Shown here one piece after another: positions 43,851 through 64,000 of a stretch of 64,000 nt of DNA. The notes under the pieces were generated by a model, which saw nothing but the letters and a program-made list of their open reading frames with translations, did not search any database and was not told the origin of the DNA. Source of the stretch: Malachius bipustulatus (lineage: Eukaryota > Arthropoda > Insecta > Coleoptera > Melyridae); assembly GCA_910589415.1 (NCBI GenBank), contig OU342634.1, positions 20,271,144 through 20,335,143 of the forward strand, read 5' to 3'. Both the position numbers and the translations under genes were made by a program. Position 1 is the first letter of the stretch. Each line of letters starts with the position of its first letter.

Positions 43851-43859
43851 ATGAAACAT
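43851..43859 (+). repeat. Target-site duplication, left copy (ATGAAACAT)
   Basis: Nine bases immediately outside the left terminal inverted repeat are repeated exactly at 59841-59849. A 9-bp duplication is the length typical of Mutator-like elements. Confidence 0.92.
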
Positions 43860-43954
43860 GTTGGAGTGAAGCTATCCACACCAGTCCAGCCACACGACAT
43901 ATGCACTCCCGCACAGCGGTCGACGTAGATAAACTTTTAAACGGGCTATATTTG
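43860..43954 (+). repeat. Left terminal inverted repeat, unique part
   Basis: These 95 bp match the complement of 59747-59840 with two substitutions and a one-base indel (CACTCCCGC versus CATTCCGC; GGGCTATA versus GGGCCATA). Similarity continues inwards into the first 165-bp monomer. They are the likely transposase-recognition ends. Confidence 0.92.
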
Positions 43955-46159
43955 TTCATCCACACGACACGAAATTTCAGTTTTTAATTTTTTTTAATAT
44001 GACAGACGGCGTGACAAACATTGAGACCCCCCGCAGTATTTTCGAAATACAATCGTGTAACATACCCTAGAAGGAAATTCTGGCACAACGACTCTAAAGG
44101 TGGTTTCAGCCTGATAAAGTTCATCCACACGGCACCAAATTTCAGTTTTTAATTTTTTTTAATATGACAGACGGCGTGACAAACATTGAGACCCCCCGCA
44201 GTATTTTCGAAATACAATCGTCTAACATCCCCTACAAGGAGATTCTGGCACAACGACTCTAAAGGTGGTTTCAACCTGATAAAGTTCATCCACACGACAC
44301 CAAATTTCAGTTTTTAATTTTTTTTAATATGACAGACGGCGTGACAAACATTGAGACCCACCGCAGTATTTTCGAAATACAATCGTCTAACATCCCCTAG
44401 AAGGAAATTCTGGCACAACGACTCTAAAGGTGGTTTCAGCCTGATAAAGTTCATCCACACGGCACCAAATTTCAGTTTTTAATTTTTTTTAATATGACAG
44501 ACGGCGTGACAAACATTGAGACCCCCCGCAGTATTTTCGAAATACAATCGTCTAACATCCCCTACAAGGAGATTCTGGCACAACGACTCTAAAGGTGGTT
44601 TCAACCTGATAAAGTTCATCCACACGACACCAAATTTCAGTTTTTAATTTTTTTTAATATGACAGACGGCGTGACAAACATTGAGACCCACCGCAGTATT
44701 TTCGAAATACAATCGTCTAACATCCCCTACAAGGAGATTCTGGCACAACGACTCTAAAGGTGGTTTCAACCTGATAAAGTTCATCCACACGACACCAAAT
44801 TTCAGTTTTTAATTTTTTTTAATATGACAGACGGCGTGACAAACATTGAGACCCACCGCAGTATTTTCGAAATACAATCGTCTAACATCCCCTACAAGTA
44901 GATTCTGGCACAACGACTCTAAAGGTGGTTTCAACCTGATAAAGTTCATCCACACGACACCAAATTTCAGTTTTTAATTTTTTTTAATATGACAGACGGC
45001 GTGACAAACATTGGGACCCACCGCAGTATTTTCGAAATACAATCGTCTAACATCCCCTACAAGGAGATTCTGGCACAACGACTCTAAAGGTGGTTTCAAC
45101 CTGATAAAGTTCATCCGCACGGCACCAAATTTCAGTTTTTAATTTTTTTTTATAATGACAGACGGCGTGACAAACATTGAGACCCCCCGCAGTATTTTCG
45201 AAATACAATCGTCTAACATCCCCTACAAGGAGATTCTGGCACAACGACTCTAAAGGTGGTTTCAACCTGATAAAGTTCATCCACACGACACCAAATTTCA
45301 GTTTTTAATTTTTTTTAATATGACAGACGGCGTGACAAACATTGGGACCCACCGCAGTATTTTCGAAATACAATCGTGTAACATCCCCTAGAAGGAAATC
45401 CTGGCACAACGACTCTAAAGGTGGTTACAACCTGATAAAGTTCATCCACACGGCACCAAATTTCAGTTTTTAATTTTTTTTAATATGACAGACGGCGTGA
45501 CAAACATTGAGACCCACCGCAGTATTTTCGAAATACAATCGTCTAACATCCCCTACAAGTAGATTCTGGCACAACGACTCTAAAGGTGGTTTCAACCTGA
45601 TAAAGTTCATCCACACGACACCAAATTTCAGTTTTTAATTTTTTTTAATATGACAGACGGCGTGACAAACATTGGGACCCACCGCAGTATTTTCGAAATA
45701 CAATCGTCTAACATCCCCTACAAGGAGATTCTGGCACAACGACTCTAAAGGTGGTTTCAACCTGATAAAGTTCATCCGCACGGCACCAAATTTCAGTTTT
45801 TAATTTTTTTTTATAATGACAGACGGCGTGACAAACATTGAGACCCCCCGCAGTATTTTCGAAATACAATCGTGTAACATCCCCCAGAAGGAAATTCTGG
45901 CACAACGACTCTAAAGGTGGTTTCAACCTGATAAAGTTCATCCACACGGCACCAAATTTCAGTTTTTAATTTTTTTTAATATGACAGACGGCGTGACAAA
46001 CATTGAGACCCCCCGCAGTATTTTCGAAATACAATCGTGTAACATCCCCCAGAAGGAAATTCTTGCACAACGACTCTAAAGGTGGTTTCAACCTGATAAA
46101 GATCATCCACACGGCACCAAATTTCAGTTTTTAATTTTTTTTAACATGACAGACGGCGC
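43955..46159 (-). repeat. Left subterminal tandem array, 165-bp monomer, about 13.3 copies
   Basis: Monomer starts (TTCATCCACACG) recur at 43955, 44120, 44285, 44450, 44615, 44780, 44945, 45110, 45276, 45441, 45606, 45771, 45937 and, as a partial final copy, 46102. Each contains CAAATTTCAG, an A/T run, GACAGACGGCGTGACAAACA, GTATTTTCGAAATACAATCG and CTGGCACAACGACTCTAAAG. The 1-bp shifts come from two monomers with TTTATAATGACAG instead of TTAATATGACAG. Those two lie 661 bp apart, which implies duplication of a four-monomer block. Short ORFs seen here are by-products of a monomer length divisible by three. Orientation is opposite to the right array. Confidence 0.95.
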
Positions 46160-46892
46160 CAATAATTTGTCACCCTCTGTAAAATCATCAAAATACAATC
46201 CCCTGTGAAAACTTTAAGGTGCTTTTCGTTATTATTTAGTCTCTAAGCCCAGATATTAGCAAACTGAATATTTCCACCGCTTAGACTGTGAGCCTGCTCT
46301 AACTGAATTTAAAATGTTTACCTTATACCTTCCGTAACACACCGTGTTATACTCACTGAGAGGTCTGACGGTGAATTCAATATTCTAAGCGTCGAGTTGA
46401 ACATCGTAGTGTGCTCTTCATTGGAGATATACCTAACCGAGTACCTAACATATTATTGTACTGTATTATCCAAGTTGATTTTCTTGTAGCATTTTACAAG
46501 AAACATTTTTCTTGTCTTCTATAGGATTTTAAGAATTTTTAGTTCTCTGGAGCTTAGTTTTATTCTTTTAAAGTGATTCTTATAGAATTTCTCACATGCC
46601 TACCTGTTTTTAGAGATTTTTTGATACCGCCATCATTTATTGTGCATCTATTTCATTTATCTTGTGCCAATAATATTATTTTGCATATTTGCAAGTAGAT
46701 TTTCTAGGTTTATTAATTACTTGTCCTTTTCATTTACTTATTTAATTTTTATCGTTTTTGGTTGGAGTGTATGTGTGGAGTGTTTTAATTTTGGTAGGTA
46801 GGTTACAGTTTCTAAATATTAGGTTTCATTTCTACTGTACTGGTATTTAGGTACATTTTGACCAAAAACTCGACTCAAAAGTGAAAAACAAA
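46160..46892 (+). promoter_or_regulatory. Non-repetitive leader upstream of the transposase
   Basis: About 730 bp of AT-rich unique sequence lies between the left array and the transposase ATG. It must hold the promoter and 5' untranslated region if the element is autonomous. I see no decisive TATA box or initiator, and no clear splice sites that would add coding sequence. Confidence 0.4.
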
Positions 46893-49800
46893 ATGTCGCG
46901 TCGAACCTATAACCCAGTCTTACTGGCAAATTTCTTCAATTCAAAGAATGTTTCTTATGAAGAACTTATAAAACTCAATTACAATGAACCAATTTTTCGA
47001 GAAGCCGCAATGTCAGTTTTCGGTGATTCAAGAAAAATGAATCGTTACGTGATATACATGTGTCTGAAAAGAGATACCAAAAAGATATCATCTATGATAA
47101 GTAAAAAAATGGCAGACAGCGTATACGTTGTTGACTATATGCCCAGAAAATCTATTAAAAAAATTTTAAAAATAAAGCGAATATTGGAGTCGCTTAAGGT
47201 AACGTCCGCTGATATGCTCGGTACATATCGCAGTACTAATTCTGTCTACGGAAACTTATGTAAGCGGCTAAATATGAAAGATAATGTAGTAAACCGTAAA
47301 AGGCTTTATATGTTTTGTCGGAGGAATGTAAATCGCCTATTTTGTAATTCTATTCCTGCTAATTATGATGCTATTCCTAAATGCAATCAATTTACTCAAA
47401 GTGTCAAAACAAATGAGTTTCTAGGTAAGCTAAGCCCTCTTCTTTCCTCGACTCCTTTATCTGCAGACGTCAGTACAAATCTATCTAACACTTCAGATAA
47501 TTTTGATTTGCCTTTCGTACAAAATTGTTCTTTCTCTGAACGTAGCGCCGATAAAAGTGTCTGCAATATATCCGATTCATTTTCTTCCATAAAGTCTAAT
47601 GAAATCACTCCCAGTTCTGAGAAAATTCCAACACCAATATCTGACCTAAAAATACATGCGCACCACAATAAGACGTTACCAGAAGGTTCTACCAATATGA
47701 AAAATGAACAGTGGAAGAGACCCACCTATAGAGAATGCACATACAAAGAGGGAGAATTTTTGTTAACTAAGAACGAAATGGACTCAATTTTCCAAAACAA
47801 AAAGCTTCAATCTGATATATATCCACATATGATGCGTCAAAAAATAAAATCTGTTAATAACACTTGTCCGATTTACATTAAGCAAAGCCGATTCGTACAA
47901 AGTTTCAGTTTTATTAAGATATACGCCTACTGCGCACATTTCTGTAAAAAATTTATTTTAAAGGTAGAAACTTCGCCAAATTCTTCCGGAAAACACATCG
48001 TTACTGTTCATAGTTCTTCAAAAAAATTTAATCACCTTCAGTGTAAATCTACACAAGTAAGAGGGATAGAAAGAAGTACAATTAGAAATGAATTAAAGAG
48101 TATGACACCGTTCCAAAGAAGAGAAAATGATGTCCTTAAATTAGATAAATTTTCTATGTCAAAGAAAAATTTTGGAACCGTAAAGTCTGATTGTGTGTAC
48201 AGGAAAATTAGATCAGAGAAACTTTCTCTCAATGACAGACACAAAGATGATTTTCTGGATTTGTATTATATGCGGAAACATCACTCAAATTATATTCAAG
48301 AAATTGGTGTTCCATTTTATGCTTACATTTTTAGTCAAGAGCAATTGAGTATATTGTCAAAATTGAATAGTTCTGTCCTATTTTTGGATGCCACCGGATC
48401 TTTAGTAAAAAAGCCAGAAGGTGAGCTGAAAAAGTGCTTTTATTACGCTGGAGTCGTACAAATGCCGAATTACAATAATAGAATTTGCCCTATTTTGGAA
48501 ATGGTTTCCTGTAGACACGATGCTGGAACAATCAGTTCTTGGCTGTTAAAATATAAAACTTATTGCTTATCTAACATCAATAAAAAATGGCCCCCATTTG
48601 ACAGAGTGGTGGTAGACTTCAGTTTCGCTTTCCTAAACGCTATATGCTGTGGTTGGAATTGTATGGATTTACCGAAATATCTAGAACTCTGCTATTATTT
48701 TATTTTGACAAACAATAATTGGCCCACAAATGTAATCAAGATTCATATTTGCTGTTTCCACATGTTTAAAATAATGGCAGACGACGTTAACATGTTCTTT
48801 GCGGATGACAGTGTCAAGTCTCAAATAAAGGAAATCTTAGCGGCTGCTTACAACATTCATTCCTGGAACGAAATCAACGACTGGTTTCATCATTTTTGCA
48901 TTGTCCTAAGTTCTGAATATCAAAACGATAAGTTTAAAAAGTCTTTCCAGTCACTTATTAATATATGTTTGCAAACTAAAATTGCCTCTAAAGACGTGGA
49001 ATACTCCCCTGAAAATAATTCAAACCATCATACTAAGTCGGATTCAGTTTACAAAAATAGCCCCTTTTTTCAACATTTTCAATCCAAAATAGATAGAGAA
49101 ATTGAAAGCACTACGTACGAAATTCCATCCTCATCGAAGAATCAGTTTTATAATATAAAGTTTCTTCACCATGCTTCAAAAAAATACATGTCTTATCTAC
49201 CTTTGTGGAGTGGACTTTTAACGTTGGACAATAATAGACTAAGTAATGCTCCTGTAGAAAGATGGTTTAACAATGTCAAAAACCATTTGGCAAAAAAGAT
49301 AATGCGGCAAAAATGTAGCAGAATTATTCGAAGGATTCGGCAACATGTGTTGTTTCTCTACAAAGAAATTAAATTTTCTATTCGAAACAAACGATGTACC
49401 ATGATCAACACAACGACTACGACGGGAGACAAGGATATGGGACTGCTTTCGCAGGAAGAATGGGGAGCTAAGCAGGGGGACAAAGTCAGTTATTTTCAAG
49501 GTAACGCCTTAAGAACGTCACTCAAAAAATGTAAATTGTCATCTATTAGCTGCAGTTCAACGAGTATGGTTCCGTTTGTAAAAAATTCAAGTCATAAAGG
49601 AATATTAGTTTACCCTGAAGATGACGATGAACTGGCTATTTGTGCTTATTGTGGACGCGGTAGTTTTGAAAAGTATACTGCATGGGTAAAATGTGATTCT
49701 TGTCATAGGTGGGTACATCAAGTTTGCGATAATCCTATAATTCTTGATGCGGATAGAGATGTGGACTTCTATGCCGGTTCTTTTATTTGTAAGATATGCC

Positions 49801-51407
49801 AGTCTTCTAAAACTTATGACATACCAATTTCAACCGACATCACCAATTTAAGGAGAAGATTTATGGATTATCTCAACAATTCTCGTCTATCAATTGAAAA
49901 GCTCCGAGAAATAGAATTGGAAACCAGGCCCCAATCATTGTCAGAAGTATGGAGAAGAGAACGCAAGTGCCGAGTTACAGCATCCCACTTCGGTGAAATT
50001 TGCAAAGCAAAGCAAACTTCTTTTAAAAATATTATATCAAGAATCATTGAGGGGAAACAAGTTTCTACAGCGGCCACAATTCACGGGAAGTCGTGTGAAG
50101 CTCAGGCTAAGAAAGAATATGAAGCTAAAAAAGGAGTAAAATGTGAAGAATCGGGGCTTTTCATTCACGAGCAATTGCAATATCTGGCAGCTTCTCCAGA
50201 TGGACTGGTTGGTAAAGATGGCCTTCTGGAAATTAAAAGTCCATACAAATTAAGATTTGAAGATTCCCTCACATATCAGTTCGACTTTCTTCATTCTGAC
50301 GGCTCACTAAAAATCTCTCACAATTATCATTATCAAATTCAAGGACAATTGGCAGTTACAAACCGAGATTGGTGTGACCTGATTATTTACACTTTCAAAA
50401 ACATCAAAGTAGTTAGGGTGTACAGGAATGAAGGATTTTGGAAAGGAATGCTCCGTAAATTGAAACAATTCTATCTGTTTTATATGCTGCCTAATATTGT
50501 TTGTCCCACGTTAAATATCAGTAATATCCATTATTCATCAATAAAATGGACTACAGAAAAAGACTTGACATTTTTTGAAAATAATTTGGTCAAAGATACC
50601 TCATATTACACTTCGTTGCCAAATAAACGAGGTTATATCATAACATCGAGTATGTCAGTCAAATTTTCAATAAAACAAATCCATATCGACGATTTTGTCA
50701 CATTAAATCCACGGGAAAAACTGAGCTGCTTCATCATAGACCACTCCATACATGTATTTTTGAAAAAATCTAATGTAAAAATTGAGGATTATCAGATAAT
50801 ATCTGTCTCGAAAACTGAAATTATTTTTGGAGACGAGGACTTGACTGAAGAATTCGTTGATGGTCTTAGTTTTAATAAAGAAGTAATTATCATGCCAGTC
50901 TATAAGAATGACCATTTTATACTTTTAATTGCCAACATGAAATTAAAAATTCTTACTATGATTGACTCTTTAGGCCATGAAACAATTACTAAGAACTATT
51001 ATATATCCAAATTAAAGAACGTTCTTGCCAGAAAAAAAATCCAAGACACTACTTTTGTAATTAATATATTGGAACATGTACGACAAAATGATTCATATAA
51101 CTGCGGTGTCTTTGTGATCTATTTTTTCAAATGCATTATCAACGGAGAGGATTTAACAAGACATTGTGACATAAATAGATTCCGAGAGGAACTAAAGTGG
51201 CTTTTATTAGAGAATAGTGATGATATGTCACAAAAATGCCTATTTTGTTCAAACGAAGCCGTTGACAATGCAACGTCGTTCAAATGCTCAAGTTGTCGAA
51301 GATTGATTCACATTAAATGTCTGCTCACAACAACTGAAATTAATAATAAAGTGCCGTTAACGGAAAAAACTCTTAACGGTCTTTGCGACCTCTGCCGAAT
51401 AAACTGA
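46893..51407 (+). CDS. MULE-like transposase with PHD, YqaJ nuclease and Ulp1/C48 protease domains
   Basis: This is an uninterrupted 1504-codon frame. I chose the ATG at 46893; the frame is open four codons further up but only from a GTG. About residues 347-381 hold a C/H cluster (C347, C351, H373, H381) in the position of the WRKY/FLYWCH-type finger of MULE transposases. The catalytic core shows D499 in FLDATGS, D575 in VVVDFS, C620xxH623 in ICCFHMF and E789 in NAPVERWFNN. A PHD finger (917-969) has the full C4HC3 set. About 1013-1190 is YqaJ-like, with D1103 (ASPDGL), E1113 and K1115 (LEIKS) and Q1148/Q1150/Q1152. About 1320-1415 is an Ulp1/C48 peptidase with H1341, D1358, Q1398 and C1404 (SYNCGVFV). 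A second C4HC3 finger ends the protein (1449-1501). Inferred roles: transposition by the DDE core, chromatin binding by the fingers, end processing by YqaJ, and SUMO/ubiquitin-like cleavage by C48. Confidence 0.92.
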   Translation: MSRRTYNPVLLANFFNSKNVSYEELIKLNYNEPIFREAAMSVFGDSRKMNRYVIYMCLKRDTKKISSMISKKMADSVYVVDYMPRKSIKKILKIKRILESLKVTSADMLGTYRSTNSVYGNLCKRLNMKDNVVNRKRLYMFCRRNVNRLFCNSIPANYDAIPKCNQFTQSVKTNEFLGKLSPLLSSTPLSADVSTNLSNTSDNFDLPFVQNCSFSERSADKSVCNISDSFSSIKSNEITPSSEKIPTPISDLKIHAHHNKTLPEGSTNMKNEQWKRPTYRECTYKEGEFLLTKNEMDSIFQNKKLQSDIYPHMMRQKIKSVNNTCPIYIKQSRFVQSFSFIKIYAYCAHFCKKFILKVETSPNSSGKHIVTVHSSSKKFNHLQCKSTQVRGIERSTIRNELKSMTPFQRRENDVLKLDKFSMSKKNFGTVKSDCVYRKIRSEKLSLNDRHKDDFLDLYYMRKHHSNYIQEIGVPFYAYIFSQEQLSILSKLNSSVLFLDATGSLVKKPEGELKKCFYYAGVVQMPNYNNRICPILEMVSCRHDAGTISSWLLKYKTYCLSNINKKWPPFDRVVVDFSFAFLNAICCGWNCMDLPKYLELCYYFILTNNNWPTNVIKIHICCFHMFKIMADDVNMFFADDSVKSQIKEILAAAYNIHSWNEINDWFHHFCIVLSSEYQNDKFKKSFQSLINICLQTKIASKDVEYSPENNSNHHTKSDSVYKNSPFFQHFQSKIDREIESTTYEIPSSSKNQFYNIKFLHHASKKYMSYLPLWSGLLTLDNNRLSNAPVERWFNNVKNHLAKKIMRQKCSRIIRRIRQHVLFLYKEIKFSIRNKRCTMINTTTTTGDKDMGLLSQEEWGAKQGDKVSYFQGNALRTSLKKCKLSSISCSSTSMVPFVKNSSHKGILVYPEDDDELAICAYCGRGSFEKYTAWVKCDSCHRWVHQVCDNPIILDADRDVDFYAGSFICKICQSSKTYDIPISTDITNLRRRFMDYLNNSRLSIEKLREIELETRPQSLSEVWRRERKCRVTASHFGEICKAKQTSFKNIISRIIEGKQVSTAATIHGKSCEAQAKKEYEAKKGVKCEESGLFIHEQLQYLAASPDGLVGKDGLLEIKSPYKLRFEDSLTYQFDFLHSDGSLKISHNYHYQIQGQLAVTNRDWCDLIIYTFKNIKVVRVYRNEGFWKGMLRKLKQFYLFYMLPNIVCPTLNISNIHYSSIKWTTEKDLTFFENNLVKDTSYYTSLPNKRGYIITSSMSVKFSIKQIHIDDFVTLNPREKLSCFIIDHSIHVFLKKSNVKIEDYQIISVSKTEIIFGDEDLTEEFVDGLSFNKEVIIMPVYKNDHFILLIANMKLKILTMIDSLGHETITKNYYISKLKNVLARKKIQDTTFVINILEHVRQNDSYNCGVFVIYFFKCIINGEDLTRHCDINRFREELKWLLLENSDDMSQKCLFCSNEAVDNATSFKCSSCRRLIHIKCLLTTTEINNKVPLTEKTLNGLCDLCRIN

Positions 51408-51489
51408 TCGCAAATCATAGTGCAAATCATTAGGCAAATATAGCAAATCGTTATTTTCTTCTCGAATTTTTTTAGGGTTGAAGGCTATT

Positions 51490-51835
51490 ATGTAGTATAG
51501 CTGTCTATGTAAAAATTTCAGTTCAATCTCTTTGAAAGTGTGCCCATAAACGGTTATTAAAATTTAGCCATTTTTACCGTATTCCAACCAACGCCACTCT
51601 GTATTATTAATAAAAATATTGCAAATTTTATTGCATTAATTCAAATTTCAAATAATTTTCTTCCAATCTTGTTAATTTGGGTGAAAAGTTTTTTTCCCAG
51701 CATGCTTATATAATAGGGGTTCAAAATCTAGTCATCCAAAAATTCAAATAGCCGCCCTTTTGAAACAGCTCGGCAGATTTTACTCAAATTCAATACCAGC
51801 CCACCTATTTATATCTTAATACCACATAAATTTCA
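51490..51835 (-). repeat. Nested or shared dispersed repeat inside the transposon
   Basis: Read on the minus strand, this stretch follows the 1930-2230 and 2590-2870 copies of the tandem repeat at the left of the window. Shared landmarks in order are CTGAAATTT, GTAAGATA-like sequence, TTGAGTAAAAT, TTTCAAAA-GGCGGC, TTTGAACCCCTA, AACAAGATTGGAA and the GGTAAAAATGGCTAAATTT word at its end. No coding capacity. It is either an old repeat that inserted into the transposon or a segment the transposon captured. Confidence 0.75.
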
Positions 51836-52240
51836 GTCCCCCCCCGTGTCGGGGTTGCTAGTCCCCCATTGGGAGCTCCCCGGGTGGCGGATAGGGGAAT
51901 GTCGTCCATATAGATGACACCGGGGGAATTATAGATACCCCGGGGCTGATCAAAACTAGCAAAAAACATGGTAGAGGACATAGAACCCACACAGCCTCGC
52001 CCGGTGCAATACCATCTTTCTGGCTTAGGCGCCGTGAAGTTGCTTTAAAGAGCTGACGTTTCGTTGCTGTGCCAGAGATTCCAGTTTAGGGGGTAAGAAA
52101 CAATAATATGCATGGATGGCGTTCCCGGGGTTAAAATTTCCCAGAGTTAAAACGACCCCCCATTCGGATCTACGGGCGGGGGCTAATCCAGGGCACATTC
52201 ATGCAGGAGAAAGAATAATAACACCTCCAGAATGGAAAAA
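51836..52240. other. GC-rich patch inside the transposon, possible nested LINE fragment
   Basis: There is an abrupt change to G/C-rich sequence with several C or G runs, for example GTCCCCCATTGGGAGCTCCC and CCCGGGGTTAAAATTTCCC. No long ORF crosses it. The composition is unlike the transposase gene and the arrays. It resembles a 5' region of an insect LINE, but this is an impression, not a match to a motif. Confidence 0.4.
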
Positions 52241-52705
52241 TTTATAGTCGACTTTTGTAATATGTATTAGAGGTTTAAACACGAATATCAATTCAGTACA
52301 TCAACATCTTCAGGTATAATAATTATAATACCATAATGAAATCAATTTATTATATTTTCTAATTTAAAAATTTCATAAAAACACCATTTTACTATCATTT
52401 TATTATATTAATTATAGTTTTTTAAAGTATTTTAAGTTTTTGCATGTTTTTTTTACGAGTGAACAAGGGACCAATCGGCCCTGAAACGTTTCGTTTTTTA
52501 TAAAAATCTTTTTATAAATAATATTTTCATTAAAGAACCCAATTCCCAATTAAATAACACAGAAATTCAACTATATAATATATAGTATGTCTCATTAGTG
52601 TGGGATTCATCTCTGACAGCTTCACATTTGAAGCTAGAGAAAAAAAAAGGGACGAAAATTGTATGGTTTGAAGAGACCTACAACCTAAAACAATTTTCAG
52701 CTATA
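52241..52705. other. AT-rich spacer before the right array
   Basis: AT-rich unique sequence between the GC-rich patch and the first right-array monomer. No gene is seen. Confidence 0.5.
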
Positions 52706-55700
52706 CACGATTGTATTTCGAAAATACTGCGGGGGGTCTCAATGTTTGTCACGCCGTCTGTCATATTAAAAAAAATTAAAAACTGAAATTTGGTGCCGTG
52801 TGGATGAATTTTACCAGGTTGAAACCACCTTTAGAGTCGTTGTGCCAGAATTTCCTTCTAGGGTATGTTACACGATTGTATTTCGAAAATACTGCGGGGG
52901 GTCTCAATGTTTGTCACGCCGTCTGTCATATTAAAAAAAATTAAAAACTGAAATTTGGTGCCGTGTGGATGAACTTTATCAGACTGAAACCACCTTTAGA
53001 GTCGTTGTGCCAGAATTTCCTTGTAGGGGATGTTACACGATTGTATTTCGAAAATACTGCGGGGGGTCTCAATGTTTGTCACGCCGTCTGTCATATTAAA
53101 AAAAATTAAAAACTGAAATTTGGTGCCGTGTGGATGAATTTTACCAGGTTGAAACCACCTTTAGAGTCGTTGTGCCAGAATTTCCTTGTAGGGGATGTTA
53201 CACGATTGTATTTCAAAAATACTGAGGGGGGTCTCAATGTTTGTCACGCCGTCTGTCATATTAAAAAAAATTAAAAACTGAAATTTGGTGCCGTGTGGAT
53301 GAACTTTATCAGGTTGAAACCACCTTTAGAGTCGTTGTGCCAGAATTTCCTTCAAGGGGATTTTATAAGATTGTATTTCGAAAATACTGCGGGGGGTCTC
53401 AATGTTTGTCACGCCGTCTGTCATATTAAAAAAAATTAAAAACTGAAATTTGGTGCCGTGTGGATGAATTTTACCAGGTTGAAACCACCTTTAGAGTCGT
53501 TGTGCCAGAATTTCCTTCTAGGGTATGTTACACGATTGTATTTCGAAAATACTGCGGGGGGTCTCAATGTTTGTCACGCCGTCTGTCATATTAAAAAAAA
53601 TTAAAAACTGAAATTTGGTGCCGTGTGGATGAACTTTATCAGGCTGAAACCACCTTTAGAGTCGTTGTGCCAGAATTTCCTTGTAGAGGATGTTACACGA
53701 TTGTATTTCGAAAATACTGAGGGGGGTCTCAATGTTTGTCACGCCGTCTGTCATATTAAAAAAAATTAAAAACTGAAATTTGTTGCCGTGTGGATCAACT
53801 TTATCAGGTTGAAACCACCTTTAGAGTCGTTGTGCCAGAATTTCCTTCAAGGGGATTTTATAAGATTGTATTTCGAAAATACTGCGGGGGGTCTCAATGT
53901 TTGTCACGCCGTCTGTCATATTAAAAAAAATTAAAAACTGAAATTTGGTGCCGTGTGGATGAATTTTACCAGGTTGAAACCACCTTTAGAGTCGTTGTGC
54001 CAGAATTTTCTTCTAGGGTATGTTACACGATTGTATTTCGAAAATACTGCGGGGGGTCTCAATGTTTGTCACGCCGTCTGTCATATTAAAAAAAATTAAA
54101 AACTGAAATTTGGTGCCGTGTGGATGAACTTTATCAGTTTGCAACCACCTTTAGAGTCGTTGTGCCAGAATTTCCTTCTAGGGTATGTTACACGATTGTA
54201 TTTCGAAAATACTGCGGGGGGTCTCAATGTTTGTCACGCCGTCTGTCATATTAAAAAAAATTAAAAACTGAAATTTGGTGCCGTGTGGATGAACTTTATC
54301 AGGTTGCAACCACCTTTAGAGTCGTTGTGCCAGAATTTCCTTGTAGGGGATGTTAGACGATTGTATTTCGAAAATACTGCGGGGGGTCTCAATGTTTGTC
54401 ACGCCGTCTGTCATTATAAAAAAAAATTAAAAACTGAAATTTGGTGCCGTGTGGATGAACTTTATCAGGCTGAAACCACCTTTAGAGTCGTTGTGCCAGA
54501 ATTTCCTTGTAGAGGATGTTACACGATTGTATTTCGAAAATACTGAGGGGGGTCTCAATGTTTGTCACGCCGTCTGTCATATTAAAAAAAATTAAAAACT
54601 GAAATTTGTTGCCGTGTGATCAACTTTATCAGGTTGAAACCACCTTTAGAGTCGTTGTGCCAGAATTTCCTTCAAGGGGATTTTATAAGATTGTATTTCG
54701 AAAATACTGCGGGGGGTCTCAATGTTTGTCACGCCGTCTGTCATATTAAAAAAAATTAAAAACTGAAATTTGGTGCCGTGTGGATGAATTTTACCAGGTT
54801 GAAACCACCTTTAGAGTCGTTGTGCCAGAATTTTCTTCTAGGGTATGTTACACGATTGTATTTCGAAAATACTGCGGGGGGTCTCAATGTTTGTCACGCC
54901 GTCTGTCATATTAAAAAAAATTAAAAACTGAAATTTGGTGCCGTGTGGATGAACTTTATCAGGTTGAAACCACCTTTAGAGTCGTTGTGCCAGAATTTTC
55001 TTCAAGGGGATTTTATAAGATTGTATTTCGAAAATACTGCGGGGGGTCTCAATGTTTGTCACGCCGTCTGTCATATTAAAAAAAAAATAAAAACTGAAAT
55101 TTGGTGCCGTGTGGATGAACTTTATCAGGTTGCAACCACCTTTAGAGTCGTTGTGCCAGAATTTCCTTGTAGGGGATGTTAGACGATTGTATTTCGAAAA
55201 TACTGCGGGGGGTCTCAATGTTTGTCACGCCGTCTGTCATTATAAAAAAAAATTAAAAACTGAAATTTGGTGCCGTGTGGATGAACTTTATCAGGCTGAA
55301 ACCACCTTTAGAGTCGTTGTGCCAGAATTTCCTTGTAGAGGATGTTACACGATTGTATTTCGAAAATACTGAGGGGGGTCTCAATGTTTGTCACGCCGTC
55401 TGTCATATTAAAAAAAATTAAAAACTGAAATTTGTTGCCGTGTGGATCAACTTTATCAGGTTGAAACCACCTTTAGAGTCGTTGTGCCAGAATTTCCTTC
55501 AAGGGGATTTTATAAGATTGTATTTCGAAAATACTGCGGGGGGTCTCAATGTTTGTCACGCCGTCTGTCATATTAAAAAAAATTAAAAACTGAAATTTGG
55601 TGCCGTGTGGATGAATTTTACCAGGTTGAAACCACCTTTAGAGTCGTTGTGCCAGAATTTTCTTCTAGGGTATGTTACACGATTGTATTTCGAAAATACT

Positions 55701-58700
55701 GCGGGGGGTCTCAATGTTTGTCACGCCGTCTGTCATATTAAAAAAAATTAAAAACTGAAATTTGGTGCCGTGTGGATGAACTTTATCAGGTTGAAACCAC
55801 CTTTAGAGTCGTTGTGCCAGAATTTTCTTCAAGGGGATTTTATAAGATTGTATTTCGAAAATACTGCGGGGGGTCTCAATGTTTGTCACGCCGTCTGTCA
55901 TATTAAAAAAAATTAAAAACTGAAATTTGGTGCCGTGTGGATGAACTTTATCAGGTTGAAACCACCTTTAGAGTCGTTGTGCCAGAATTTTCTTCAAGGG
56001 GATTTTATAAGATTGTATTTCGAAAATACTGCGGGGGGTCTCAATGTTTGTCACGCCGTCTGTCATATTAAAAAAAATTAAAAACTGAAATTTGGTGCCG
56101 TGTGGATGAACTTTATCAGGTTGCAACCACCTTTAGAGTCGTTGTGCCAGAATTTCCTTGTAGGGGATGTTAGACGATTGTATTTCGAAAATACTGCGGG
56201 GGGTCTCAATGTTTGTCACGCCGTCTGTCATTATAAAAAAAAATTAAAAACTGAAATTTGGTGCCGTGTGGATGAACTTTATCAGGCTGAAACCACCTTT
56301 AGAGTCGTTGTGCCAGAATTTCCTTGTAGAGGATGTTACACGATTGTATTTCGAAAATACTGAGGGGGGTCTCAATGTTTGTCACGCCGTCTGTCATATT
56401 AAAAAAAATTAAAAACTGAAATTTGTTGCCGTGTGGATCAACTTTATCAGGTTGAAACCACCTTTAGAGTCGTTGTGCTAGAATTTCCTTCAAGGGGATT
56501 TTATAAGATTGTATTTCGAAAATACTGCGGGGGGTCTCAATGTTTGTCACGCCGTCTGTCATATTAAAAAAAATTAAAAACTGAAATTTGGTGCCGTGTG
56601 GATGAATTTTACCAGGTTGAAACCACCTTTAGAGTCGTTGTGCCAGAATTTTCTTCTAGGGTATGTTACACGATTGTATTTCGAAAATACTGCGGGGGGT
56701 CTCAATGTTTGTCACGCCGTCTGTCATATTAAAAAAAATTAAAAACTGAAATTTGGTGCCGTGTGGATGAACTTTATCAGGTTGAAACCACCTTTAGAGT
56801 CGTTGTGCCAGAATTTTCTTCAAGGGGATTTTATAAGATTGTATTTCGAAAATACTGCGGGGGGTCTCAATGTTTGTCACGCCGTCTGTCATATTAAAAA
56901 AAAATAAAAACTGAAATTTGGTGCCGTGTGGATGAACTTTATCAGGTTGAAACCACCTTTAGAGTCGTTGTGCCAGAATTTCCTTGTAGGGGATGTTACA
57001 CGATTGTATTTCGAAAATACTGAGGGGGGTCTCAATGTTTGTCACGCCGTCTATCATATTAAAAAAAATTAAAAACTGAAATTTGGTGCCGTGTGGATGA
57101 ACTTTATCAGGCTGAAACCACCTTTAGAGTCGTTGTGCCACAATTTCCTTCTAGGGTATGTTACACGATTGTATTTCGAAAATACTGCGGGGGGTCTCAA
57201 TGTTTGTCACGCCGTCTGTCATATTAAAAAAAATTAAAAACTGAAATTTGGTTCCGTGTGGATGAACTTTATCAGACTGAAACCACCTTTAGAGTCGTTG
57301 TGCCAGAATTTCCTTCTAGGGTATCTTACACGATTGTATTTCGAAAATACTGCGGGGGGTCTCAATGTTTGTCACGCCGTCTGTCATATTAAAAAAAATT
57401 AAAAACTGAAATTTGGTGCCGTGTGGATGAACTTTATCAGGTTGAAACCACCTTTAGAGTCGTTGTGCCAGAATTTCCTTCAAGGGGATTTTATAAGATT
57501 GTATTTCGAAAATACTGCGGGGGGTCTCAATGTTTGTCACGCCGTCTGTCATATTAAAAAAAATTAAAAACTGAAATTTGGTGCCGTGTGGATGAATTTT
57601 ACCAGGTTGAAACCACCTTTAGAGTCGTTGTGCCAGAATTTCCTTCTAGGGTATGTTACACGATTGTATTTTGAAAATACTGCAAGGGGTCTCAATGTTT
57701 GTCACGCCGTCTATCATATTAAAAAAAATTAAAAACTGAAATTTGGTGCCGTGTGGATGAACTTTATCAGGCTGAAACCACCTTTAGAGTCGTTGTGCCA
57801 GAATTTCCTTCTAGGGTATGTTACACGATTGTATTTCGAAAATACTGCGGGGGGTCTCAATGTTTGTCACGCCGTCTGTCATATTAAAAAAAATTAAAAA
57901 CTGAAATTTGGTGCCGTGTGGATGAACTTTATCAGGCTGAAACCAACTTTAGAGTCGTTGTGCCAGAATTTCCTTGTAGGGGATGTTACATGATTGTATT
58001 TCGAAAATACTGAGGGGGGTCTCAATGTTTGTCACGCCGTCTGTCATATTAAAAAAAATTAAAAACTGAAATTTGGTGCCGTGTGGATGAATTTTACCAG
58101 GTTGAAACCACCTTTAGAGTCGTTGTGCCAGAATTTCCTTCAAGGGGATTTTATAAGATTGTATTTCGAAAATACTGCGGGGGGTCTGAATGTTTGTCAC
58201 GCCGTCTGTCATATTAAAAAAAATTAAAAACTGAAATTTGGTGCCGTGTGGATGAATTTTACCAGGTTGAAACCACCTTTAGAGTCGTTGTGCCAGAATT
58301 TCCTTCTAGGGTATGTTACACGATTGTATTTCGAAAATACTGAGGGGGGTCTCAATGTTTGTCACGCCGTCTGTCATATTAAAAAAAATTAAAAACTGAA
58401 ATTTGGTGCCGTGTGGATGAACTTTATCAGGCTGAAACCACCTTTAGAGTCGTTGTGCCAGAATTTCCTTCTAGGGTATGTTACACGATTGTATTTCGAA
58501 AATACTGCGGGAGGTTTCAATGTTTGTCACGCCGTCTGTCATATTAAAAAAAATTAAAAACTGAAATTTGGTGCCGTGTGGATGAACTTTATCAGTTTGC
58601 AACCACCTTTAGAGTCGTTGTGCCAGAATTTCCTTCTAGGGTATGTTACACGATTGTATTTCGAAAATACTGCGGGGGGTCTCAATGTTTGTCACGCCGT

Positions 58701-59746
58701 CTGTCATATTAAAAAAAATTAAAAACTGAAATTTGGTGCCGTGTGGATGAACTTTATCAGGTTGCAACCACCTTTAGAGTCGTTGTGCCAGAATTTCCTT
58801 GTAGGGGATGTTAGACGATTGTATTTCGAAAATACTGCGGGGGGTCTCAATGTTTGTCACGCCGTCTGTCATTATAAAAAAAAATTAAAAACTGAAATTT
58901 GGTGCCGTGTGGATGAACTTTATCAGGCTGAAACCACCTTTAGAGTCGTTGTGCCAGAATTTCCTTGTAGAGGATGTTACACGATTGTATTTCGAAAATA
59001 CTGAGGGGGGTCTCAATGTTTGTCACGCCGTCTGTCATATTAAAAAAAATTAAAAACTGAAATTTGTTGCCGTGTGGATCAACTTTATCAGGTTGAAACC
59101 ACCTTTAGAGTCGTTGTGCCAGAATTTCCTTCAAGGGGATTTTATAAGATTGTATTTCGAAAATACTGCGGGGGGTCTCAATGTTTGTCACGCCGTCTGT
59201 CATATTAAAAAAAATTAAAAACTGAAATTTGGTGCCGTGTGGATGAATTTTACCAGGTTGAAACCACCTTTAGAGTCGTTGTGCCAGAATTTTCTTCTAG
59301 GGTATGTTACACGATTGTATTTCGAAAATACTGCGGGGGGTCTCAATGTTTGTCACGCCGTCTGTCATATTAAAAAAAATTAAAAACTGAAATTTGGTGC
59401 CGTGTGGATGAACTTTATCAGGTTGCAACCACCTTTAGAGTCGTTGTGCCAGAATTTCCTTGTAGGGGATGTTAGACGATTGTATTTCGAAAATACTGCG
59501 GGGGGGGGGTCTCAATGTTTGTCACGCCGTCTGTCATATTAAAAAAAAAATAAAAACTGAAATTTGGTGCCGTGTGGATGAACTTTATCAGGTTGAAACC
59601 ACCTTTAGAGTCGTTGTGCCAGAATTTCCTTCAAGGGGATTTTATAAGATTGTATTTCGAAAATACTGCGGGGGGTCTCAATGTTTGTCACGCCGTCTGT
59701 CATTAAAAAAAAAATTAAAACTGAAATTTCGTGTCGTGTGGATGAA
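52706..59746 (+). repeat. Right subterminal tandem array, 165-bp monomer, about 42.7 copies
   Basis: The same monomer as in the left array, in opposite orientation. Starts (CACGATTGTATTTCG or variant) recur every 165 bp, for example 52706, 52871 and 53036. Variants at a few positions define monomer types: AAGGGGATTTTATAAG, CTAGGGTATGTTACACG, GTAGGGGATGTTAGACG and GTAGAGGATGTTACACG. These types recur in fixed orders. The identical four-part segment starting at 54283 is found again at 55109, 56100 and 58741, separated by 826, 991 and 2641 bp, that is 5, 6 and 16 monomers plus one base each time. This shows higher-order blocks made by unequal exchange or conversion. No protein is encoded. Confidence 0.95.
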
Positions 59747-59840
59747 CAAATATGGCCCGTTTAAAAGTTTATCTACGTCGACCGCTGTGCGGAATGCATA
59801 TGTCGTGTGGCTGGACTGGTGTGGATAGCTTCACTCCAAC
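59747..59840 (-). repeat. Right terminal inverted repeat, unique part
   Basis: Complement of 43860-43954 with two substitutions and one indel; it ends GCTTCACTCCAAC. Confidence 0.92.
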
Positions 59841-59849
59841 ATGAAACAT
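59841..59849 (+). repeat. Target-site duplication, right copy (ATGAAACAT)
   Basis: Exact copy of 43851-43859 directly outside the right terminal repeat. It fixes the element boundary. Confidence 0.92.
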
Positions 59850-61671: not shown

Positions 61672-64000
61672 TCACCCGGGGTTGTCTAAATTTCTCAGGA
61701 CCTGCTGAACGGTCCTTCTCCAGCGTTTCCGGTCATTTGCTTGCCGTGCTGCGGACGCAAAGCTCGAGTCCACAAGCTTTTCCACCACTTCAGTCCAACG
61801 GGTCGGTGATCGCCCACGCTTCCTCTTTCCCTCAAGTCGTCCTTGTACCATCAGTTTTTCCATGGTATCGTGGCGTGCGATATGTTCGAAAAACTTAAGG
61901 ATTCGTCCATATGTCAACGATGAGAGTCTCTGGACTGGCTTGACTTCGTTTAGGATGGAAACGTTCGTTCTTCTGGCTGTCCATGGGATCCGCAGCATTC
62001 TCCGCCACACCCACATCTCAAAAGCATCTATTCGCCGCCGGTCGGCTGCGCGAATGGTCCAAGTCTCCGAGGCGTAAGAAAAAATCGGAAAAATGAGCGT
62101 ATTAACCAATTTGATTTTCGTGGCTTTCGTTATGTTACGATCCTTCCATACTCTGGACAATTGCATCATAGCATTCCGAGCAATTTCTATGCGTCGTCTA
62201 ATTTCATATTCGCATGAGCCGTATTTATGCAACATCGATCCTAGATAAATGAATTTATCCACTACTTCGAAGCGCCCTATACTTCTCGGTTGATTATGAT
62301 GTTCATTATCGCGGTCAACGATCATAATTTTGGTCTTATTAATGTTTATTTTTAGCCCAAAGTCAAAACTCACGACTTCAAGTCTTTGGATCAGTTCTAA
62401 GAGCTCTCTTACACTGCTCGCAATCAAGGTTGTATCATCTGCGAATCGGAGGTTTGAAAATCTCTTTCCGGCAATTTTAATTCCACCATTCCACTGTTCC
62501 AAAACTTGTCTCATTATAATCTCACTATATACTTTATACAGTAATGGTGAGAGCACGCAACCCTGTCGTACGCCTCTCCGAATATTGCATCTATCAGATA
62601 AAGTATTTTCGATCTTCACCACTGCTTCCGAGGCTTCGTATAGATTTTTAATGAGGGTTGTCAGATGGATTGGTACGCCGATTTCAATTAAAGTACTCCA
62701 AAGTTTCGGCCACCTGACATTATCGAAGGCCTTCTCATAGTCAACGAAGCAAATATACATTGGAACGCCATACTCCCGAGCTTTTTCTGTCAGCTGTCTT
62801 GCATTAAAAATGTGTTCACGGGTTTCCCGCCCCTTGACAAATCCAGCCTGTTCCTCAGAAATCTGACGATCGATAAAAGCACTTAGACGCGCTTGCAACA
62901 CGTACAGCATGATTTTACTAGCGTGAGATATAAGCGCTATTAGGCGGTAGTTATCACAGTTGGTCTTTGGTCCTTTTTTGTGGAGCGGCAATAAGACAGA
63001 CGTGGACCAATCTTTTGGCCAGAGTCCCGCTTTCCATATTCTTTGGCAAAGGAAATGCAGGATTCTCAGGCCTCTGTCGTCCAAAGTTTTTAAAACATCT
63101 GCTGATATTTGATCGATTCCAGTCGCCTTACCATCTCTCAGCTTCCTGATTGCTGCCTTAACTTCGTCCAGGAGTATATCCGGCTCCTCTTCATAATCGC
63201 CGAGTTCGTCGACAACAGAGTCTGGATCGGTATACAGGGTCCCACAGTAGTTCTTCCAGATGGAGGCTATCTTATTCAACTCCGTAGCCGGCACATTCTG
63301 CTCATCGTGTATTATCCAGTGTCGTGTCTTGAATTTACGAGTAATGATTCTAATTTTCTGAAATAGATCTTTTGTGCTATTCGTTGCTGCATGGTTTTGA
63401 ACCTCTTCGCACATAGTCGCTAGATACGCATTTTTGTCTCTACGGGTTGCACTCTGTATGGCTCGGTTCAGCAAATTATAACGCTCGAGGTCCACAGTGT
63501 TATCCAACCCTAGAGATTTGATCTCCCTTCGTTCACGTATCAACTCCCTTGTTTCTGTTGTTATCCAAGGTTTCCATTTGTTATCTAGGTGTTCGTTTGG
63601 CATTTCCTTGAGTGACGATATAACAGCCGTTTTCATAGTCTGCCATATCTTCTCGGGGCTCTCATTCTCAATATCTTGAACCAAAGGTGCAACTTTGTCC
63701 ATGACAGAATCGTTAAAGCGTTGAACATGAACAGCATTCAATGGGGGGAGCTTTCTTATTTGTCTTCTTTGACAGTTTTTGAATCTGGCGAAATATTCGC
63801 ACATCAGAAGCTGATGATCACTTCCGCAGTCTGCCGATGGCAGCGTCTTCGCCGCTCGAACAGAAGCTCTCCAACGCTGCCTAACTAAGATGTAATCAAT
63901 TTGGTTTTTGTACTTGCCATCCGGTGATCTCCAAGTAAATAAACGTCTTTTGTGATGTTCAAACATAGAGTTTACAATCGCAAAGTTGTTGTCAATGCAA
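61672..64000 (-). CDS. RTE/BovB-like LINE polyprotein, 5' part cut by the window edge
   Basis: The frame stays open for 775 codons and runs off the right edge; the ATG at 63966 is internal. Numbering from that ATG: residues 11-52 are the end of an apurinic-type endonuclease (TWRSPDG, QIDYILV, and catalytic SDH with D50-H51). About 300-560 are the reverse transcriptase, with SVLLPLHKKG, NYRLIAL, D409 in CFVDYEKAFD, RRGVRQGCVLSPLL, and FADD at 508-511. The C-terminus has YLGSMLH, SETWTIRAADRRRIDAFEMW and WRRMLRIPWTARRTNVSIL, a segment typical of the RTE/BovB clade. The visible part has no stop or frameshift, so the copy may be young. Product role: nicking target DNA and copying the element RNA by target-primed reverse transcription in the nucleus. 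Confidence 0.93.
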   Translation of the reverse strand, partial: CIDNNFAIVNSMFEHHKRRLFTWRSPDGKYKNQIDYILVRQRWRASVRAAKTLPSADCGSDHQLLMCEYFARFKNCQRRQIRKLPPLNAVHVQRFNDSVMDKVAPLVQDIENESPEKIWQTMKTAVISSLKEMPNEHLDNKWKPWITTETRELIRERREIKSLGLDNTVDLERYNLLNRAIQSATRRDKNAYLATMCEEVQNHAATNSTKDLFQKIRIITRKFKTRHWIIHDEQNVPATELNKIASIWKNYCGTLYTDPDSVVDELGDYEEEPDILLDEVKAAIRKLRDGKATGIDQISADVLKTLDDRGLRILHFLCQRIWKAGLWPKDWSTSVLLPLHKKGPKTNCDNYRLIALISHASKIMLYVLQARLSAFIDRQISEEQAGFVKGRETREHIFNARQLTEKAREYGVPMYICFVDYEKAFDNVRWPKLWSTLIEIGVPIHLTTLIKNLYEASEAVVKIENTLSDRCNIRRGVRQGCVLSPLLYKVYSEIIMRQVLEQWNGGIKIAGKRFSNLRFADDTTLIASSVRELLELIQRLEVVSFDFGLKININKTKIMIVDRDNEHHNQPRSIGRFEVVDKFIYLGSMLHKYGSCEYEIRRRIEIARNAMMQLSRVWKDRNITKATKIKLVNTLIFPIFSYASETWTIRAADRRRIDAFEMWVWRRMLRIPWTARRTNVSILNEVKPVQRLSSLTYGRILKFFEHIARHDTMEKLMVQGRLEGKRKRGRSPTRWTEVVEKLVDSSFASAARQANDRKRWRRTVQQVLRNLDNPG

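What the first reader, a model, noticed from the sequence alone, without database searches (positions are those of the whole stretch)
46893..51407. Single protein joining DDE transposase, PHD, YqaJ nuclease and Ulp1-type protease
All catalytic sets are visible in one frame: D499/D575/E789 with CxxH; D1103/E1113/K1115 with a QxQxQ stretch; H1341/D1358/Q1398/C1404. Plant MULEs with Ulp1 genes and KDZ elements with Ulp1 domains are known, but I do not know of a described element with this full order. A nuclease of the lambda-exonuclease fold beside a DDE core could process ends or gaps. The protease could remove SUMO or a ubiquitin-like protein at the target, or cleave the polyprotein itself.
Basis: partly seen in the sequence, partly recalled or inferred. 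Interest (0 to 1): 0.93.

Follow-up and report, generated by a model that had tools for sequence, protein, structure and literature searches.

The report
Satellite-armed transposon with four-part transposase
This is a complete, recently mobile DNA transposon that looks like the little-studied Rehavkus kind, flanked by long inverted satellite arrays, whose single protein joins a transposase to a chromatin-type finger, a DNA exonuclease fold and a SUMO-type protease fold, a combination not met in the papers searched.

Summary
The frame 46893-51407 encodes one 1504-residue protein. Pfam, AlphaFold models and structure comparison support a DDE core, PHD finger, YqaJ (lambda-exonuclease-fold) nuclease and Ulp1/SENP-type C48 protease, with a second PHD-like finger at the end.

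A copy with an identical protein sits elsewhere with its own 9-bp duplication. The anatomy matches Rehavkus, used in print as outgroup of Mutator-like elements; Rehavkus-1_TC has a 164-bp satellite in its termini. The searches and passages seen mention no YqaJ or C48 in Rehavkus.

Relatives show a modular C-terminus: six C48-bearing relatives lack YqaJ, and two proteins have a USP-like tail instead of C48. C48 Cys, His and Gln are kept in 14 of 14 aligned C48 members. Five monomer types (144-168 bp) without clear similarity occur among 11 loci read.

Best reading: cut-and-paste transposition with ubiquitin-like-modifier removal at chromatin (inferred); YqaJ an optional end-processing nuclease (inferred). 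Real; a new variant of a known kind.

The parts
43851..43859 (.). left target-site duplication ATGAAACAT (9 bp)
   Evidence: read directly; identical to 59841-59849
43860..43953 (+). left terminal inverted repeat outside the array (94 bp, GTTGGAGTGAAGC...)
   Evidence: 28 matches to this end in the genome
43954..46158 (+). left satellite arm, 165-bp unit, 13.4 copies
   Evidence: Tandem Repeats Finder
46159..46892 (+). 5' non-coding stretch between left arm and ORF
   Evidence: core 46159-52703 matches the C14:21.43 Mb copy with 0 mismatches and one gap
46893..51407 (+). single ORF, 1504 aa transposase
   Evidence: identical protein at G000:C14:21430259-21434782
47715..48182 (+). beta-rich region before the DDE core (residues 275-430); C282, C325, C347, C351, H381 invariant in the 11-row alignment A1; fold not identified
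   Evidence: invariant columns; strands; no supported Pfam match
48282..49376 (+). DDE (RNase H fold) catalytic core, residues 464-828; D499, D575, C620xxH623, E789
49641..49799 (+). PHD finger, residues 917-969
   Evidence: Pfam PF00628 7.7e-7
49950..50366 (+). YqaJ nuclease domain, residues 1020-1158; D1103, E1113, K1115
   Evidence: Pfam PF09588 6.9e-19; LHK-Exo and lambda exonuclease folds
50661..51218 (+). Ulp1/SENP-type C48 cysteine protease, residues 1257-1442; H1341, D1358, Q1398, C1404
51237..51347 (+). C-terminal PHD/C1-like zinc finger, residues 1449-1485
   Evidence: sub-threshold Pfam C1_2 6e-4, PHD 1.1e-3; Cys/His columns kept in all six rows of A4
51408..52703 (+). 3' non-coding stretch between ORF and right arm
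   Evidence: present in the second copy
52704..59747 (-). right satellite arm, same 165-bp unit in inverted orientation, 42.6 copies
59748..59840 (-). right terminal inverted repeat outside the array
59841..59849 (.). right target-site duplication ATGAAACAT (9 bp)

Best explanation
The locus is a complete, recently mobile DNA transposon of the Rehavkus kind (outgroup of Mutator-like elements in print). The DDE core cuts the element out at its terminal repeats and inserts it with a 9-bp stagger (shown by anatomy, not biochemistry). The PHD finger and the C-terminal finger tether the complex to chromatin (inferred). The C48 protease takes SUMO, or a related modifier, off proteins at donor or target chromatin or off the transposase itself, easing silencing or repair control (inferred). 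The YqaJ nuclease is an optional helper that trims or resects DNA at the break (inferred, weaker).
Confidence: 0.65

Rival explanations
1. The C-terminal domains are passenger or relic modules: the transposon works by its DDE part alone and PHD, YqaJ and C48 drift.
For: YqaJ is missing or has changed catalytic residues in several relatives; copies with broken C48 moved; C48 is less conserved overall than the DDE core.
Against: C48 His/Gln/Cys in 14 of 14; YqaJ, where present, is more conserved than the DDE core; a USP-like domain stands in the same place in P0017/P0018.
Confidence: 0.15
2. The protease is a self-processing enzyme that cuts the 1504-residue protein into separate transposase, nuclease and protease.
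For: Unlike enzymes in one chain; the fold lists also hold, lower down, viral proteases of the same fold.
Against: No Gly-Gly in the window protein and none at a shared border in nine sequences; the best folds are SENP, Ulp1 and NEDP1; protease-broken copies moved.
Confidence: 0.07
3. The YqaJ nuclease drives expansion of the satellite arms by resecting breaks so that repeats anneal, making the element a satellite factory.
For: The five subfamilies whose DNA was read all have arrays of 144-168-bp units; arms of the two near-identical copies differ by blocks of whole units while the core has no substitution.
Against: The C2:34.07 and C3:0.08 Mb copies, of a subfamily without YqaJ (C2 copy translated), have arms of 15-25 units too; the two arms of one element share no unit type, so no exchange between arms is seen; unequal exchange or assembly error could also change arm length.
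Confidence: 0.12
4. A domesticated host gene rather than a transposon.
For: Long intact frame.
Against: TIRs, TSDs, dispersed copies and a short non-autonomous derivative.
Confidence: 0.01

Closest known systems
Rehavkus DNA transposons (e.g. Rehavkus-1_TC of Tribolium castaneum)
   Same: 9-bp TSD, single ORF, PHD finger, minisatellite before the 3' TIR (PMC6446971); 9.5 kb with a 164-bp satellite in inverted termini (PMC10218199)
   Different: Arms far longer here (13 and 43 units against mostly five and eight); YqaJ, C48 and the second finger are not mentioned in the passages seen; own-genome subfamilies carry dissimilar monomers
Ginger1 transposons (PMC2836005, passages)
   Same: DDE transposase with a C-terminal Ulp1 domain, in one family with PHD; the paper also notes a C19 peptidase with another transposase and proposes a role for such proteases in transposition
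   Different: Gypsy-integrase-like DDE; here D575 and E789 are 214 residues apart with CxxH between; the word YqaJ does not occur in its main text
Mutator-type proteins with YqaJ (P0024 Macrosiphum, P0008 Lasius)
   Same: DDE transposase fused to a homologous YqaJ domain (Pfam; hhalign of YqaJ to P0008 4e-39)
   Different: DDE is Pfam's Mutator family, with no detectable similarity to this one for P0008; no PHD reported; C48 in P0008 only hinted by motif
ISL2EU elements (PHIS superfamily, PMC4482050, passages)
   Same: A DNA transposon that brings a YqaJ exonuclease domain
   Different: YqaJ is in a second ORF; the transposase is of PIF/Harbinger kin with a THAP domain
Foldback elements (Tetris, Tm1, Galileo; passages)
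   Same: Long terminal repeats built of tandem units; Tetris and Tm1 have about 9-bp TSDs
   Different: No such multi-domain transposase in the passages seen

Membership tests
Rehavkus | 9-bp target-site duplication | tested here: met
   window copy and 7 more of 10 copies read at both ends
Rehavkus | PHD finger in the transposase | tested here: met
   PF00628 7.7e-7
Rehavkus | single ORF | tested here: met
   one ORF of 200 aa or more inside the element
Rehavkus | minisatellite before the 3' TIR | tested here: met
   165-bp arrays, in both arms
Rehavkus | TIR of 26-400 bp | tested here: met
   94-bp repeat outside the arrays; much longer if arrays are counted
Rehavkus | arthropod or annelid host | not testable with these tools
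Rehavkus | transposase sequence similarity to a described Rehavkus protein | not testable with these tools
   no sequence under that name was at hand
Mutator-like elements in the strict sense | DDE triad with CxxH between the second D and E and a large insertion | tested here: met
   D499, D575, C620xxH623, E789; that this is a hallmark is recalled
Mutator-like elements in the strict sense | DDE sequence recognisably similar to the Mutator family | tested here: not met
   no Pfam Mutator or MULE match in 11 proteins; hhalign to one Mutator-family protein 0.15, controls 0.24 and 0.40
Mutator-like elements in the strict sense | fold of an IS256/MULE-type transposase | tested here: inconclusive
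Ginger1 | integrase-like DDE with close D-E spacing | tested here: not met
   214 residues between D575 and E789; the short spacing is recalled
Peptidase C48 (Ulp1/SENP) | fold | tested here: met
Peptidase C48 (Ulp1/SENP) | His-Asp-Gln-Cys active site | tested here: met
   H1341, D1358, Q1398, C1404
Peptidase C48 (Ulp1/SENP) | cleavage of SUMO or a related modifier | not testable with these tools
   needs an enzyme assay
YqaJ / lambda-exonuclease fold | fold | tested here: met
YqaJ / lambda-exonuclease fold | catalytic D, E and K | tested here: met
   D1103, E1113, K1115 in the window protein; all three in 11 of 13

The most novel reading that the evidence does not exclude
A family of transposons has made removal of ubiquitin-like modifiers part of the transposase. 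The protease slot was filled separately by a Ulp1-type and a USP-type enzyme, beside a histone-reading finger, with a swappable viral-type exonuclease. Each lineage travels inside its own nucleosome-sized satellite arms, so these elements would both evade SUMO-based silencing and seed new satellite DNAs.
Probability: 0.3. Interest if true: 0.8.

Novelty: new variant of a known kind. Interest (0 to 1): 0.6.

Why it matters
SUMO-linked silencing is a brake on transposons in animals (recalled). A transposase that carries its own SUMO-type protease, with its catalytic His, Gln and Cys kept in 14 of 14 aligned members and a USP-like domain in its place in two relatives, makes 'does the element strip modifiers in order to move?' testable with point mutants of one protein. 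The same elements carry long satellite arms with a different monomer in each subfamily read but a steady 144-168 bp length, so they are candidates for how nucleosome-sized satellites arise and spread. Two insertions with identical proteins suggest recent activity.

Tried and rejected
Mutator assignment by sequence: no significant Pfam transposase match in 11 proteins, hhalign to a Mutator-family DDE no better than controls; Rehavkus by anatomy kept instead. Terminal-repeat motif repeated in each satellite unit as a binding site: a 14-of-17 match in the window subfamily is not significant (p 0.10), and three other subfamilies give p 0.32-0.56. Shared ancestry of the monomers: only short matches among the five types, best E about 0.015 with doubled units. 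Exchange between arms: not seen in the three elements compared. Self-cleavage at Gly-Gly: no shared site. FLYWCH-type finger before the DDE core: suspected by eye, no Pfam support. C48 in the Lasius protein: motif and hhalign score 24 against controls of 11-12, but no Pfam match. A PDB relative of the P0018 tail: none by sequence. Whether the satellite occurs outside elements: at least 391 unit matches, but only the best 150 or so were listed, all on contigs C1, C6, C13 and C14, so open. Viral contigs: one weak match, not followed.

Counts and dropped rows. The tree used 19 sequences; P0005, P0014 and P0016 are short chains without an architecture label. The conservation figures used 10 of 13 sequences (P0019, P0020, P0023 partial) and 44 of 45 pairs (P0002/P0010 left out as near-duplicates). 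Of 35 protein matches in the genome (lower bounds), DNA of 13 copies was fetched at least in part. Ten copies, one of them a 672-bp derivative, were read at both ends for TSDs; six more loci (L037-L042) showed one end only. Papers: section 8 and passages of PMC6446971; passages only of PMC10218199, PMC13359780, PMC4079207, PMC3169594, PMC2836005, PMC4482050 and PMC13289751; all others listings only. Of eight papers with the word Rehavkus I opened three.
Full report

2. The element. Inverted arrays of a 165-bp unit flank the gene: 43954-46158 (13.4 copies) and 52704-59747 (42.6 copies). Outside them lie 94-bp terminal repeats starting GTTGGAGTGAAGC, then a perfect 9-bp duplication ATGAAACAT. 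The element is 15,981 bp. The copy at C14:21.43 Mb has an identical protein, TSD CTTCCGTGG, and a core with no mismatch and one gap in 6546 columns; its arms have 20.4 and 28.6 units. Parsed unit by unit, the two copies differ by blocks of whole units (left 13 and 20, right 40 and 28) with the order of the others mostly kept; a few unit types occur in one copy only.

3. Relatives in the same genome. The search gave 35 protein matches, lower bounds. The C2:5.09 Mb copy (38% identical protein; 23,010 bp; TSD CGCTCGATC) has arms of a 153-bp unit. The C6:11.6 Mb copy (38%; TSD TTATCGATA read) has 144-bp units. The C2:34.07 and C3:0.08 Mb copies have 157-bp units, lack YqaJ (C2 copy translated; C3 frame of the same length) and show no TSD. 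A 168-bp array lies beside the C16:16.86 Mb copy, only one side read. Including the window, 11 loci were read for arrays; nine show both arms. The five monomer types share only short matches. Termini share RYYGGNGTGAA by eye.

4. Broken-protease copies that moved. Copies on C1 and C13 share a stop in the C48 region and the same 2175-bp insertion, and differ by 1 in 8727 columns; the C14:22.2 Mb copy shares the stop and the insertion as far as read. Their TSDs are TAAACTTTT, AACCAATGC and ATTTTTCAT. Their truncated protein would still hold DDE, PHD and YqaJ, and intact copies exist, so this does not decide between help in trans and a dispensable protease.

5. Relatives elsewhere. Three protein searches returned 8, 9 and 10 proteins. 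The order PHD-YqaJ-C48 is seen in P0001-P0004, P0011, P0021 and P0022, and in the partial P0019, P0020 (Callosobruchus chinensis) and P0023; for most of these C48 rests on alignment and active-site residues, Pfam reporting it only for P0003 and P0011. Others have C48 without YqaJ (P0006; P0015, Pyrocoelia pectoralis), a C48-like stretch without the active site followed by PHD and C48 (P0007, P0012, P0013; the first stretch judged by eye, no C48 match), or a USP-like tail (P0017, P0018). In a tree of 19 DDE domains the USP, C48-only and pseudo-C48 groups are each well supported. P0009, without YqaJ, groups with six YqaJ-bearing proteins (98/97), but that fork is open; the YqaJ label needs at least two changes, so YqaJ was lost or gained more than once and the tree does not say which.

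6. Conservation by domain, ten YqaJ-bearing proteins, 44 pairs: N-terminus 21.9%, beta region 44.0, DDE 41.5, PHD 43.4, YqaJ 47.0, C48 35.7, C-terminal finger 40.8. So YqaJ, where kept, is held at least as tightly as the DDE core, while C48 is looser overall but constant at its active site (H, Q, C in 14 of 14, D in 13 of 14).

7. What it works like. Shown: anatomy of cut-and-paste transposition, recent copies, conserved catalytic sites, folds. Inferred: that PHD binds histone tails, that C48 removes SUMO or a related modifier, that YqaJ resects DNA. Best argument for the protease: active-site constancy and the USP-like domain in the same place in another lineage. Best arguments against essential roles: YqaJ absent from several relatives, and mobility of protease-broken copies.

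8. What is known. Rehavkus is recorded with 9-bp TSD, one ORF, a PHD finger and a minisatellite before the 3' TIR (PMC6446971; its main text has no word beginning Ulp1, nuclease or peptidase), and Rehavkus-1_TC with a 164-bp satellite in its inverted termini (PMC10218199). The 2026 arthropod MULE survey has none of the words YqaJ, Ulp1 or PHD in its main text (PMC13359780). Searches pairing YqaJ with transposon terms listed no paper that, by title and abstract or by the passages opened, describes this architecture (one search listed 33 of 34). Ginger1 and Mutator transposases with Ulp1, one Ginger1 with PHD, and a C19 peptidase beside another transposase are noted in PMC2836005, which already proposes a role for such proteases in transposition. 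ISL2EU carries YqaJ in a second ORF (PMC4482050). The single parts are thus known; the full order in one Rehavkus-like protein, its modular turnover and the very long subfamily-specific satellite arms are what this adds.

9. Verdict.

Noticed in passing
G000:C16:21196911-21209463 (L016, L017): Two copies of the 144-bp subfamily lie head to head in a 12.5-kb palindrome, 99.1% self-complementary, with arrays on both sides. It could be a real palindromic element or an assembly fold-back.
   Followed up: partly
P0017 and P0018 (unnamed contigs): Related DDE transposases with a USP-like (C19, perhaps C98) tail in place of C48.
   Followed up: partly
P0007, P0012, P0013: A C48-like stretch without active-site residues precedes PHD and the C48 with its active site; a possible pseudo-protease (by eye).
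   Followed up: no
L008:1501-6015 (-) and P0002: YqaJ catalytic residues are changed (E to Q and K to T; D to G) although the frames are open.
   Followed up: partly
window 61672-63966 (-): 764-aa ORF with a reverse transcriptase domain (PF00078 1.4e-34), probably part of a retrotransposon beside the element.
   Followed up: no
L043 (G000:C4:26845379-26846050): A 672-bp non-autonomous derivative with both termini and TSD ATCTCCAAG.
   Followed up: partly
L023-L026 (C2:34.07 Mb and C3:0.08 Mb copies): Complete-looking elements with 157-bp arms and no YqaJ but without a target duplication.
   Followed up: no
L046: A viral contig encodes a 33% identical match that falls mainly in the YqaJ part of the query (position by my arithmetic).
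   Followed up: no
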